From the NCBI RefSeq assembly GCF_032884065.1, contig NW_027062876.1:1-64000 (forward strand): a stretch of 64,000 nucleotides of DNA, read 5' to 3'. The DNA is from Artemia franciscana. Taxonomy: Eukaryota; Arthropoda; Branchiopoda; Anostraca; Artemiidae. The position numbers were made by a program, and so were the translations under genes. This document shows, one piece after another, positions 27,583-64,000 of the stretch (position 1 is the stretch's first letter; the number at the start of each line of letters is the position of its first letter). Under the pieces are notes generated by a model. The model was not told the origin of the DNA and did not search any database. It worked only from the letters and a program-made list of their open reading frames with translations.

Positions 27583-28145
27583 TTCAGTGTGTACCCTACT
27601 ACTGAAGTTGTCAACCCCTTGAAATTTTCAAACTAGTATATCTCATGAAGGATTTTTTCGACCAAAAAATGAATGACATGTAAAGAGCTATCGACTGCCG
27701 TCGAAAAAAAATTCTATCTATCTTAGTTCAAAAGTTGATTTTTTTGCCGTAGGCCAACTTTCTAACGTCACCACTTAGAAAAAAGCAAAGGATATGCTCC
27801 AGTTTCTTTAGCAATGATAGAACTTTTAAAGTTTAAGAGGTGCATCTGACAACATTTCTCTACTTCAATCCCAAGTCCGAAAAAAAAAAATTATAAACCC
27901 AGCCAAAATCACGGCAGCACTTTCGTACCCGTGGGAAAATACCGCTTTTTTGTTTCTGTAATTTTTTTATATTTATCACTCAAAGAAGATATATTGCTTC
28001 TGGGACCGGTTAACTGCCGCATATATTCAAAACTTCATCAATCCGGCCTGAGGTTCACACTTTCCACAAAAACCGCACAGGTTAGACCCTTACCAACTTC
28101 CAGGAATAAGCCTTCATCGGCGGCATAGAAAAAAAAAACGAGACA
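27583..28145 (+). repeat. X-family 3' part, D1 copy
   Basis: Begins at 'gtttcagtgtgtaccctact' directly after the RT relic and ends at 'acaaaaccaaagtgtt' (about 28142), the X right end cut just before its hairpin. Nearly identical to 51365-51950 and 56095-56690, and inverted at 53324-53745. One difference is a deletion that removes 'actttgatcacctcatc' next to 'gacatgta'. Confidence 0.75.
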
Positions 28146-29522
28146 AAACCAAAGTGTTAGCAAAGGAAGGGGTAGAGAGTTATTGTTATCCATTAATTTT
28201 GATGCTAATAAACTGGACTGAGCTTAAATAAATGTGTTAAGGAAAATTAGAAAATATCTAGAGGAGAAAACTAAAATCTACAATTCCCTCCGCTCACTAC
28301 GTCCTGACGTCAAGTCAAATCTTATTGTGCCACATTTTGTAAGACGTACCAGGAAATTTGAGATTGTATCATAAAGTACTTCTAGAGATGAAATGTACCC
28401 GAATGTTACAATTGTACTGCTCTTGGCAACGCTAGATAGCGATGAGACATAGATGCCTTTAACAATTCCTAAGTTACTTTTTTCTAATTTAAAAAGGGTT
28501 TTGACTTTTCTTCCATTTTTCTTAGTGGGCAGGACAGATTTGGCTTTTTTAGCTTAAATCCTTGCTCTTTACTTTGAAGCTTGACTTTTGTCCAAATTCC
28601 TTAGACATTCACGGAAACACAAGGGCCATTGAATTGGAAAAAGAAGGTTTATTAAAGAACTAAAAACTTTTGTTTAATGCTTGAGCAAATAGTTTTGAAA
28701 GTAGCATTCCCCCTTATATACAGAGTAATTTCACTTTTTTTAAAGTACTAAAGCTATATCTTCCTTTAATCTGAAAAATCAACTTTATTCGTTTATTACC
28801 ACTTCGTAAAACGATACAATTTTATTAACACAAGGCTTTTGCTAACACTGAAAAAATAGTCAATATTTCAAAGCATAGAGACAAATATTTCGTAATCTTA
28901 GAGACACTCATTTTTTGAAAGTTAATGAAAAGGTATGCATATACTTCTAGTTGGTAGACAGACAAGGTTAAGAAAATCTCAAATCTTGTACTGGCCTAGC
29001 CTTACCCTTTCTGATCATCTAGTAATGCAGTGAGGTTAAGTTAGAGAGCCTAGAACAACTAGGAGACTGATGAATTATTTTTAGATGTCTCCATCCTCCA
29101 CTTTGTTTTTTCATCAGCTATCACATACTGTTTCTAGCCCCAAAGTTAAAAGTATCATGGGCAGCCATGTAAATAGCATTGTGGGCACGGCGTATTATTA
29201 TTATTATTTTTTTTTTTTTTTAGACAAGGGCACTTCGTATCGAAGGATTCGTCAACTTCCGAAAGGGCTTATTCGATTCCAAATTGAAAAGGCTAGTGCC
29301 CTATTTAATGTTCGGAGGTGTTTAGTGGGCAACTGGCCCCTCTCTGACACCTAGTATTTCCGCAAATACATATAATCAATATTTTAAGAAAGCCATTTTG
29401 CTCAACATAGTTGAAAGATCAAGAAATTATATTTTTGAAGCTGAATAAGCTCAGAATGTTTCTGATCAAAGTACGACTTCGTGAGAGACATCATAAAATT
29501 ATTCAACAATCTCCCCTAGATT
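28146..29522 (+). repeat. Segmental duplication block A, copy 1
   Basis: Nearly identical to 51950-53323, and its first about 490 bp also to 56690-57176. No gene recognised. It includes one dispersed unit of the R-related repeat at 29220-29460 and a T-run at about 29206-29220. The right end is 'caatctcccctagattggct', after which the copies diverge completely. Confidence 0.8.
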
Positions 29523-29716
29523 GGCTAATAACCAAATCAAAAATCCATTAAACAGAGACTTACTGGCAAGTGTTCAAACAATTCAAACAGAACAAATATC
29601 CTAAATAAGCAATAGCATCCACCAGCGCGCACTAGCTCCGAACGGAATGAATGCTGGCAAGCATTCATTCCGCTTTTACTGGCAAGCATTTCGCTTTTGA
29701 CAACCAGCAAGTACAT
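29523..29716. other. Copy-1-specific insert between blocks A and B
   Basis: About 190 bp are present only here. At the same junction copy 2 carries an inverted X segment instead. It contains a perfect palindrome with 12-bp arms at 29644-29671 (ggaatgaatgct, ggca, agcattcattcc) and partial repeats of 'ctggcaagcat' either side. Confidence 0.55.
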
Positions 29717-30702
29717 AGTGTGTTTTGATTATGTTTGGTATTTTTCTCAACATTTTCTTAAAGTTTCATCTTAATATCCTAAGTCTTTTTGGATATCAAG
29801 GATCAAACATTCCTTCTTTTTCTAATAAAAACCTTATTTGTAAATAACGGGCATCTTACATAACTTACAGCTCTTGCCCCCGGGTCCTGCAAGTTTTTTA
29901 GTCAACCCCATAGGCATAGTTATATTACCTATGGACTGTGATTTTTTTTTTTTTTTTTTTTTTTTTTTTTTTGGCATAGTTTTAAGCAAAAGCTATGCAA
30001 TTTGTATATTTTCATTTTAGTTTAATTAAAATATGTTAATTACATAATGAAATAAATAACGCAAAAAAAAACATACCAAATAGTTTTAAATCATAAAACT
30101 ATAAAACGTTACATCTTGAACGACTATGTAAGACCTATATATTTATTGTGGAAATGCTTTTCTTTCATTATTTCAAAACAAAACAACTTTCTAAGCAGTG
30201 ATAACAACCAAGGAAATTGCCTAGTGGCTGCAAAATTAAGGGGGGGGGGGTGATATCAATTATCTAGTGTTGTTAACACTAAATTTGTAGTAATTGAAGA
30301 TGATAATTACTCATTTGTTAATTCCGAATATTAACTTGTCTATACTGGTAAACTGTAGTGTTTACTAACTTTTTTAATGAAAATTTGTCATTACAAACAA
30401 AATTAAACATGGATTTTGTACCACTGCAATAAGACTGATTGTATCAGTTGTGAAAATTTGTTTTACACATTTGTTCTGTATAAATGTATTTCTTTTGTTT
30501 CAATGTATAATGAATTTGACCAAATATCTCTTGAAGCTGAGACTAAATTTTCAGCGAGTTTATTTAGATTACGATATAGCGATTGTGTATTTTATTATAC
30601 ACGATTTTTGTCTCGAACTCTTAACTGTTGTGGTGCTCTACGCTGAAAATAAGTGTATGTTATTTAATATCTTAGGTCTTCAGTACAAACACGCACACTC
30701 AA

Positions 30703-30808
30703 ATATATATATATATATATATATATATATATATATATATATATATATATATATATATATATATATATATATATATATATATATATATATATATATATAT
30801 ATATATAT
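30703..30808. repeat. (TA)n microsatellite upstream of host exon, copy 1
   Basis: About 53 uninterrupted TA units. Its end is 29 bp upstream of the last base of the AG 3' splice site at 30837. The long Tyr-Ile frames on both strands are an artefact of this repeat. Confidence 0.95.
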
Positions 30809-30837
30809 CTGTGTAAATAATCTTTTCTTTTTTTAAG

Positions 30838-62057: not shown

Positions 62058-62795
62058 AGGAATTATAGTAAATTATCCCATGTAAAATTCCCCCCAAAAA
62101 TGAACCTCCACGTGCAAACCCCCCTCCAAAGGTGTCCCTATAAAAAATGAAATTTGTAACAAATTGACTAATTTAGTAACTTACATCCCTTTCCCAGGGG
62201 CTGTGGTGGTTCTTGTCATTCTCAGAGATATAGTTAATGCACCTCAAAATTTTGTGTCCAAATTTTTACCAGGTAACTTTACGGAAAAGGTGGCATTGGA
62301 GGGGTGCTAGTTACCCTCCAATATTTTTGGTCATTTAAAGAGGGCACTAAAATTTAATTTCTGTTTGAATGAGCCCTCTTTCAATCTTCTAGGACCATTG
62401 GTTTAATACAATCACCTCTATAAAAAATAAATAGACACACATCCATGATCTTTCCTCTGGCAAATAATATAAAATTCTTTATTAGAAACTTGAAACCTCT
62501 AAAGTAGGGTTCTCTGAAATACTGATTCTATTAATGCAATTTTCATTAACATTCCTTGAGTTTTGGGGGTGTTTCCTCCTTTTTTCAAAAATCAGGCAAC
62601 TTTTATCAGGCTCGTAGTTTTTGATGGGTAACATTAAACTTTATGAATTTTATATATTTGGAATTTGCATAAAGAGCCAATTCATTTGATATATCTATGG
62701 TTACCAAAATTTCGGTTTTTAGAGTTTTGGCTACTACTGGGCCAAATTGATCCTTAGTTACAGTTTGTTACCATGAACTGTTTGAATAAAATTTA
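62058..62795 (+). repeat. R-family repeat tail, copy R6b
   Basis: Duplicate of 34009-34745. Confidence 0.65.
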
Positions 62796-63159
62796 CAATT
62801 CCCAGTTGCTCTTGTGAAGAGTGGTTATGCATGCATGATTCTTTTTCTCAATTTTGTTGTTCATAAGCAAGCAGCAACTGTAGATTATTTCGACTCATGT
62901 GAATGAAAATTTAAAAATTCTAGAACTAATAAAATGGTGCTTCTCTTTCATGGATTCATTCATTTAAGTTTCTCGAGCAGTTTTCTTAGAAACTAATTTC
63001 ACTGATTGGTTTTGTTTGTTGATTTTTTATTTCTTTTGTTGTTGTTTTTCTCTAAAAATTTATATTGAAGCGAATTTGGCCGTCAAATTTTCAAATTTAC
63101 TGAAGCTACTTTATTAGTAAATGATTACACTGATTGATAACTTTTGATGTTTTTTCTAG

Positions 63160-63324
63160 AGACCAAGAGAAACATCAAATAGTACAAGTGGTTCCGACTT
63201 TGAGGATAATAATGTTCCATATATTACAGTAAAGGAGAGAAAGAAACAACAGTTACTAAGGCTTGGAAGAATTTCACAGATATTTGAAGCTATTATGTCA
63301 GCAAAGTTACTAAAGCAAAAGTAA
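63160..63324 (+). CDS. Exon-like terminal coding segment, copy 2
   Basis: The same 54-codon frame plus TAA as at 35111-35275, after the same acceptor. It has two amino-acid differences (Thr to Ser at residue 8 and Asn to Lys at residue 25) and no disruption. A few bases of the preceding intron are missing, but the pyrimidine tract and AG remain. Function unknown. Confidence 0.42.
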   Translation, partial: RPRETSNSTSGSDFEDNNVPYITVKERKKQQLLRLGRISQIFEAIMSAKLLKQK

Positions 63325-63624
63325 AAAATGAGTTTTTATCTTCACCTCTGTTGTCCTGACTTGACAAATATACAAAAATAGTGTCGTGAAATATTTAAAC
63401 TTTTCCATTTTTTGGCAATTTTCCAATTTTTGAAGCCGACACTCGGCAGGCTTCTATATATAGATCCTCACTGTCACTTGTCTTCTAACCACAGACAATC
63501 TGAACCTTTTATTGATGTCCTGACGTCCAAATGAACCTTAAATTGGAAGTGGTACATTTGTAAAATTACATTTGTTTTACTCTACCTTTAACTTTTGCTT
63601 CGGCTCGTATTTGGTCATTATGAA

Positions 63625-64000
63625 AGAACCATCAGCGAACCTTTGTTTGTTTTAATTGTCCAGGTGGTGGGACAAAAACTTTTTTTTTCTTCCAGCAATT
63701 TATCTAGTCTTGGTTTTCGATTTTCAAACGTATGAAAGGTATTGACAACCACTTTTGATTCTTTTCATTGTTCAGGTGGTGGAACAAAAACTTCTTCTTC
63801 TGCCTCGGCTTATATTTTGTCATTATGAAAGATATGTCACCAAACCTTTGTTTCTCTTAATTGTTCAAGTGCTGGGACAAAAACTTATTTTTCTTCCAAA
63901 GTTATATCAACTCCAGGTTTCCGATTTTCAAAAGTATCGTAAGCATTGATGACCACCTATATTTCTTTTCATTGTTCAGGTGATGGTAAAAAAACTTCTT
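63625..64000 (-). repeat. 204-bp tandem repeat, copy 2 (cut by window end)
   Basis: Duplicate of the array at 35575-36085, with the same alternating 112/92-bp spacing of 'caggtggtgg'-type phrases. Confidence 0.6.

What the first reader, a model, noticed from the sequence alone, without database searches (positions are those of the whole stretch)
27583..64000. Three copies of one host exon carried by a mosaic segmental duplication
Seen: blocks A (about 1.4 kb), B (about 2.1 kb) and C (at least 4.1 kb) recur at 28.1-36.0 kb and 51.9-64 kb with only scattered differences, so the 134-bp SLC35C2-like exon exists three times with intact splice sites. Known: SLC35C2 is a single-locus gene in most animals. 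Inference: this is either a recent segmental duplication that could create exon duplicates or extra gene copies, or an assembly artefact.
Basis: partly seen in the sequence, partly recalled or inferred. Interest (0 to 1): 0.72.

Follow-up and report, generated by a model that had tools for sequence, protein, structure and literature searches.

The report
Gene fragment carried by mosaic duplication
A 4.2-kb piece of a sugar-transporter-like gene, holding one exon, appears to have been copied from another large contig into a repeat-rich region and multiplied there, so the exon is seen three times as a gene fragment rather than as new genes.

Summary
The repeat is real in the sequence and larger than reported. 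The window is bases 1-64000 of contig C290 (75,245 bp) of a 1.27-Gb genome. A stretch at 27.58-43.15 kb recurs at 51.36-71.86 kb, and the second copy is internally rearranged. The 134-bp SLC35C2-like exon occurs three times with AG/GT on its sides.

The source is not local. C290 29690-33909 matches C10:37630915-37635607, where a following SLC35C2-like exon also lies; on C290 only one such exon was found, with intron DNA. It is therefore a DNA-copied gene fragment. Including two exon copies in tandem gives a stop. All three copies share two amino-acid changes from C10.

C290 looks like a second version (probably the other haplotype) of C1:28.27-28.29 Mb, which has 1,571 other bases in place of a 6.33-kb composite. 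The A-fragment junction holds a truncated piece of a young dispersed repeat and a short filler.

Verdict: an ordinary mosaic segmental duplication with a duplicated pseudogene fragment. Whether the two-unit structure exists in the animal, or is partly assembly error, needs reads.

The parts
23383..27580 (+). Left flank L; collinear with C1:28278000-28282705 (98.3% and 98.7% in two pieces, about 0.5 kb more in C1 between them). The left edge is only the edge of the C1 stretch that was read. Contains a reverse-transcriptase frame (26864-27619) whose end crosses the junction
   Evidence: RVT_1 E 3.8e-08
27581..29445 (+). Block A, copy 1; 1.68% different in aligned bases from C1:28215373-28217239
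29445..29663 (-). x: 219-bp end piece of a young dispersed element (most listed copies 97-98%), cut off at 29445; strand is inferred from a coiled-coil-like frame in a longer relative (non-LTR retrotransposon 5' end suspected)
29664..29689 (.). Filler between x and the gene fragment; its first bases pair with the end of x (30-bp palindrome 29643-29672)
29690..33909 (+). SLC35C2-like gene fragment, copy 1 (intron-exon-intron); matches C10:37630915-37635607
30838..30971 (+). 134-bp SLC35C2-like exon, copy 1
33910..35888 (+). R, copy 1; matches C1:28284277-28286256 at 98.2%
35889..43450 (+). D, copy 1 (with 27-bp tandem repeats, AT and AG microsatellites). 39030-42130 was found in full only on C290, twice
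43568..51238 (+). seg: single on C290, two relatives on C1 (28206513-28214482 and 28287279-28293767)
51211..53321 (+). Block A, copy 2, followed (53240-53321) by 82 bp of x
53320..53884 (-). Inverted copy of the start of block A
53888..55945 (+). Gene fragment, copy 2, truncated (= 29721-31803); ends inside an intronic inverted repeat
54980..55113 (+). SLC35C2-like exon, copy 2 (identical to copy 1)
55944..57176 (+). Block A, copy 3, truncated (= 51211-52445)
57177..58023 (-). Inverted copy of 53863-54659, carrying the invA-fragment junction with it
58030..61959 (+). Gene fragment, copy 3 (= 29966-33909)
58885..59018 (+). SLC35C2-like exon, copy 3 (one further M to I change)
61960..63937 (+). 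R, copy 2. The duplication continues past the window to 71864 of the contig

Best explanation
A genomic fragment of an SLC35C2-like gene on C10 (about 4.2 kb: intron, one 134-bp exon, intron) was copied as DNA and joined to a block that belongs to the C1:28.2-Mb region (block A). In the present sequence a truncated piece of a young dispersed element and a short filler lie between them. The composite A-x-fragment (6.33 kb) sits in C1-type DNA at the place where C1 itself has 1,571 other bases. Later about 15.9 kb (composite plus R plus D) was duplicated, giving two units whose left edges are 23.8 kb apart. The second unit underwent further local events in which short pieces were copied in direct and inverted order. 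This yielded the third exon copy. C290 is most likely the other haplotype of C1:28.27-28.29 Mb, held as a separate contig. The exons are pseudogene pieces, not extra genes. Shown: the copies, the C10 and C1 matches, collinear flanks, junction letters and divergences. Inferred: direction and order of events, template-switching or end-joining mechanism, haplotype status, lack of function.
For: Whole-genome searches with two parts of the fragment (40 of 363 and 40 of 1,117 candidates scored) found it on C290 and C10 only, apart from short dispersed repeats, a microsatellite and the R part. C10 has a following SLC35C2-like exon at about 37636344 (E 2e-5), 0.7 kb past the fragment's end; C290 gave no second exon type. 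Intron DNA is kept on both sides. Flanks match C1 at 98.2-98.7% and stop at 27580 and 33910; C290 10600-13400 matches C1:28267714-28270510 at a printed 100%, the next best places at 88%. Divergence layers: fragment C290 vs C10 4.05%; copy 1 vs copy 3 0.68%; R1-R2 1.11%; D1-D2 0.88%; A2-A3 0.28%. The inverted piece 57177-58023 carries the invA-fragment junction and, over its main part, is closer to the remote copy 2 (2 of 523 sites) than to its neighbour copy 3 (6 of 566), so it is not a plain fold-back of its neighbour.
Against: No reads were available, so depth and spanning support are untested. The fragment differs from C10 by 4.05%, but its flanks differ from C1 by only 1.05-1.8%. A single direct jump into this site after the C290/C1 split does not fit easily; it needs an earlier stop elsewhere, a diverged C10 allele, or loss from C1. 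A1 is closer to the C1 block (1.68%) than to A2 (2.09%), so the A blocks do not share one simple history with the fragment. D is nearly absent from C1, so C290 is not a plain allele. Which order at 27580 is older is not settled: the reverse-transcriptase frame goes on for only five codons in C1 before a stop. The right tail of the contig (72.3-75.2 kb) could not be placed because those searches did not complete. Only one following exon of the C10 gene was seen; upstream exons were not checked.
Confidence: 0.7

Rival explanations
1. Partly an assembly artefact. The fragment insertion may be real once, but the two-unit structure results from joining haplotypes or the near-identical seg copies, and the inverted pieces come from chimeric reads.
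For: Unit1-unit2 divergence (0.68-1.11% outside block A) is of the same size as C290-C1 divergence (1.05-1.8%). C290 is closer to the C1 copy at 28.287 Mb at 44.4-45.2 kb and mostly closer to the copy at 28.207 Mb from there on, as a misjoin across two near-identical repeats could give. An inverted repeat with arms of about 0.6-0.8 kb lies at 57.2-58.6 kb. The contig is short and separate.
Against: [quoted passage not shown] The unit1-unit2 join follows C1 order. Nested junctions occur twice and differ by a few bases. D was found twice on C290 and not in full elsewhere (40 of 5,833 candidates scored). The first 400 bp of seg are closer to the 28.207-Mb copy (100% vs 99.2%), which blurs the switch.
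Confidence: 0.33
2. A true tandem array made by unequal crossing-over between direct repeats (seg or A copies), with only part of the array captured in the contig; more copies may exist in the animal.
For: seg (mostly) and A are repeated in the same orientation on C1 and C290; the hybrid profile near 45.2 kb fits a crossover.
Against: Unit 2 stops at or next to an AG microsatellite (43450-equivalent) instead of running through seg. Copy number cannot be counted from an assembly.
Confidence: 0.3
3. A mobile element captured and moved the gene fragment (Helitron-like or other transduplication).
For: A young dispersed element end lies at the A-fragment junction, and the fragment's left end is itself a dispersed repeat.
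Against: C1 has 1,571 other bases at the site, and no target-site duplication or matching ends are seen by eye at 27581 and 33910. The element piece is truncated, and the C10 match starts only after it. Among scored candidates only C290 and C10 carry the fragment.
Confidence: 0.1
4. A retained functional exon: spliced into local transcripts, or used to patch the C10 gene.
For: AG/GT and the open frame are intact in all three copies. The exon differs from C10 by 3 of 134 bases (2.2%) while the 3 kb from the exon on differ by 4.05%; too few changes to test.
Against: Two of three shared changes alter amino acids, at residues where C10 agrees with the recalled human protein, and copy 3 has a further change. 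No neighbouring exon was found. Tandem use gives a stop.
Confidence: 0.05

Closest known systems
Mosaic interspersed segmental duplications (best described in primates, from general knowledge; PMC7419210, abstract start seen in the listing)
   Same: Pieces from several loci are stitched side by side and duplicated again as one block; gene fragments are carried along
   Different: Much smaller, in an unnamed eukaryotic genome, on a separate short contig; only one gene fragment recognised
Duplicated (unprocessed) pseudogene fragment
   Same: Intron-exon structure of the parent kept; parent locus elsewhere (C10)
   Different: A single internal exon only, present three times through later duplication
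Templated-insertion / template-switching rearrangements, MMBIR type (PMC8421209, abstract start seen in the listing)
   Same: Copied segments in direct and inverted order, few shared bases or short extra bases at the joins, nesting
   Different: Several time layers rather than one event; mechanism inferred from sequence alone
Haplotype-derived false duplication in assemblies (PMC9516828, passages read)
   Same: About 1% divergence, separate short contig, an allele-like C1 region in the same assembly
   Different: No gap between the copies, nested junctions, sequence not found on C1; read depth not testable

Membership tests
Segmental duplication (working definition from general knowledge: at least 1 kb, at least 90% identity) | Length and identity | tested here: met
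   7,190 aligned columns at 98.4% and 4,163 at 97.7%
Mosaic segmental duplication | Adjacent blocks with different best-matching loci | tested here: met
   A with C1:28.215 Mb, fragment with C10, R with C1:28.284 Mb
Duplicated (unprocessed) pseudogene | Introns kept, parent gene elsewhere | tested here: met
   Intron DNA on both sides of the exon matches C10; the C10 gene was seen only in part
Duplicated (unprocessed) pseudogene | Not functional / not expressed | not testable with these tools
   No RNA; amino-acid changes and missing exons only suggest it
Processed pseudogene | Introns absent | tested here: not met
   Introns present
SLC35C2 gene copy | Full set of exons | tested here: not met
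   One exon type in 75 kb of C290 with one tblastn query; a following exon was found on C10 only
Haplotype-derived false duplication | Assembly gap between the copies | tested here: not met
   0 N in C290
Haplotype-derived false duplication | Half read depth and single-copy k-mers | not testable with these tools
   No reads
Transposon gene capture (Helitron, Pack-MULE) | Element ends and target-site duplication around the captured piece | tested here: inconclusive
   Junction letters read by eye only; none seen; C1 has 1,571 other bases there
MMBIR / template switching | Microhomology at joins and templated inserts | tested here: inconclusive
   Joins share about 0-2 bases or carry 3-6 extra bases; inverted copied pieces present; no control for the microhomology

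The most novel reading that the evidence does not exclude
The C290 haplotype carries a real, still-growing 23.8-kb unit in which a captured exon of an unlinked gene is being multiplied, segregating against a C1 haplotype without it: an exon-shuffling intermediate caught while polymorphic, with a young element end at the fusion point.
Probability: 0.15. Interest if true: 0.45.

Novelty: new member of a known kind. Interest (0 to 1): 0.25.

Why it matters
It shows, with parent locus, flanks and an alternative version all in one assembly, how a gene fragment can be carried to a new place and multiplied. It also warns against counting the three exons as gene copies. For specialists it is one more example of mosaic duplication; its value would rise if reads showed that the animal is heterozygous for it.

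Tried and rejected
Rfam (gathering threshold) and ARAGORN scans of the window found nothing. Pfam on eight translations gave families above their curated cut-offs for 2 of 8, both reverse transcriptase; three weaker matches lay below their cut-offs. The exon and the following C10 exon gave no family. The solved-structure search of the exon gave 0 hits. A simple tandem duplication of 27581-51357 was set aside because unit 2 stops at the 43450-equivalent. A plain allelic copy of C1 was set aside because the fragment and most of D were not found on C1. A fold-back read artefact at 58.0 kb was judged less likely because the inverted arm matches the remote copy better. I first took the reverse-transcriptase frame as proof that the C1 order is older; on checking it goes on for only five codons in C1, so I dropped that argument. 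A paper search for SLC35C2, duplication, pseudogene and exon (at least 3 of 4 terms; 6,770 papers, ten listed) showed one listed paper with SLC35C2, on O-fucosylation (listing only).

Not completed: the genome-wide search with an SLC35C2 protein, the placement of C290 72.3-75.2 kb, and a separate search with seg (not repeated) did not complete.
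Full report
What is there. The window is G000:C290:1-64000; C290 is a contig of 75,245 bp in an assembly of 1.27 Gb and 6,468 contigs. Self-comparison confirms the repeat blocks and, with the rest of the contig, extends them: 27581-43148 recurs at 51358-71864. The longest exact direct repeat in the window is 780 bp, against 15, 16 and 18 bp in three single-base shuffles.

Anatomy. Unit 1 reads A (27581-29445), x (29445-29663), filler (29664-29689), gene fragment (29690-33909), R (33910-35888), D (35889-43450). Then comes seg (43568-51238), which is single on this contig. 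Unit 2 reads A (51211-53239) with 82 bp of x, an inverted piece of A (53320-53884), a truncated gene fragment (53888-55945), a truncated A (55944-57176), an inverted piece (57177-58023), the gene fragment without its first 276 bp (58030-61959), R (61960-63937) and D to 71864. The inverted piece 57177-58023 carries the invA-fragment junction with it, so it is probably younger than that junction.

The exon. Three copies of 134 bp with AG before and GT after; they match residues 174-222 of a human SLC35C2 sequence that I recalled, E 6e-11, 6e-11 and 2e-10. The next best match of that query on C290 had E 2.4; short exons could be missed. The exon length is 2 mod 3; joined to itself it runs into a stop after ten further residues.

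The source. A whole-genome search with 31900-34200 found C290 twice and C10 at 92% up to base 33910, from where C1 takes over at 98%. A search with 29690-31420 found three direct and one inverted place on C290, C10, and otherwise only the dispersed repeat at the fragment's left end and the AT microsatellite. These searches scored 40 of 363 and 40 of 1,117 candidates. The C10 match spans 37630915-37635607; a following SLC35C2-like exon lies at about 37636344 (E 2e-5). Upstream exons were not checked. The exon copies share three changes from C10, of which two alter residues (L to H, P to S); the C10 residues agree with the recalled human protein. Copy 3 has one more (M to I).

The setting. C290 23383-27580 and 33910-35888 match C1:28278000-28282705 and C1:28284277-28286256; C1 has 1,571 bp between them where C290 has the 6.33-kb composite. 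C290 10600-13400 matches C1:28267714-28270510 at a printed 100%; the next best places are dispersed copies at 88%. C1 holds two relatives of seg: 28206513-28214482, followed by A, and 28287279-28293767, not followed by A in the stretch read, up to 28297999. C290 is closer to the second at 44.4-45.2 kb and mostly closer to the first from there on; the first 400 bp (100% vs 99.2%) and the last 250 bp (93.7% vs 94.9%) go against this simple picture. Another contig, C373, carries related seg and A pieces. D (39030-42130) was found in full only on C290, twice; about 700 bp of it lies at C1:28358475-28359195, inverted, 95% (40 of 5,833 candidates scored). I read C290 as an alternate haplotype of this C1 region; a paralogue cannot be excluded.

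The junction. x is the end of a dispersed element; most of the copies listed are 97-98% identical and share its boundaries (40 of 1,859 candidates scored). Three fetched places (C6, C4, C15) show the boundary followed by different DNA; the C6 stretch holds it twice. Read on the minus strand, the C4 copy opens into a frame rich in E, K and L like a coiled coil; that it is a non-LTR retrotransposon is my inference. Between x and the fragment is a short filler that begins with bases pairing with the end of x (30-bp palindrome). By eye the other joins share about 0-2 bases, and two carry 3 and about 6 extra bases.

Time layers. Differences in aligned bases: fragment vs C10 4.05% (123 of 3,040); copy 1 vs copy 3 0.68% (21 of 3,071); R1-R2 1.11%; D1-D2 0.88%; A1-A2 2.09%; A1-C1 1.68%; A2-C1 2.36%; A2-A3 0.28%; C290-C1 flank L 1.05% and 1.28%, R 1.37-1.77%. 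The fragment therefore separated from C10 before the duplication. It is also more diverged from C10 than the flanks are from C1, which suggests that it did not jump directly from this C10 allele into this site. In its far-left 219 bp the inverted piece is equally close to copies 1 and 2 (2 differences each).

Which order is older at 27580. Not settled. A reverse-transcriptase frame crosses the point in both versions; in C1 it goes on for five codons, in C290 for thirteen, before a stop, and the recognised domain is nearly complete before it.

Mechanism. Most likely: DNA-level copying and joining of unlinked pieces (template switching or end joining), with repeats as break points, followed by duplication and small nested events. 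One breakpoint (31803/55945) lies inside a 485-bp inverted repeat that the C10 intron also has. Unequal crossing-over between direct repeats may have made the larger duplication. These steps are inferred.

Artefact question. Half depth, k-mers and spanning reads cannot be tested here. Against a plain haplotype join: no gap in the contig, C1-like order across the unit1-unit2 join, nested junctions. For it: unit divergence of the size seen between C290 and C1, and the change of closest relative near 45.2 kb. PMC9516828 (passages read) lists half depth, gaps and discordant pairs as the marks of false duplications, and mentions false palindromic chimeras.

Verdict. Confirmed observation, partly supported interpretation, an ordinary kind of event with an unusually readable parent locus, flanks and alternative version. 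Interest 0.25.

Noticed in passing
29445-29663: A 219-bp end of a dispersed element; most listed genomic copies are 97-98% identical, several on small contigs, some spaced about 8-11 kb apart (C1929, C2): a young, possibly active family.
   Followed up: partly
48589-48887, 50179-50462, 6741-7007, 1482-1778: A diverged repeat family (about 72-77% alike in the window) whose copies each contain a self-complementary stretch of about 270-300 bp; related copies also on C1 and C10.
   Followed up: no
8857-10247 and 19682-22022: Two related arrays (87% alike over 931 bp) with units of about 111 and 290 bp.
   Followed up: no
10600-12600: Up to 2 kb present at 38 further places among the 40 candidates scored, 82-89% identical, besides an almost identical counterpart on C1: a large dispersed family.
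   Followed up: no
31426-31862 and 32044-32527: Inverted repeat of 485 bp (84%) inside the SLC35C2-like intron, also present on C10; one rearrangement breakpoint falls inside it.
   Followed up: partly
C1:28187906-28188005: A 100-N gap on C1 whose left edge (28187625-28187905) matches C290 42134-42416 and 70849-71129 at about 96-97%: C290-like DNA may belong in or near that gap.
   Followed up: no
43190-43443 and contig 72048-72257: The duplication ends at or next to an AG microsatellite in both units.
   Followed up: no
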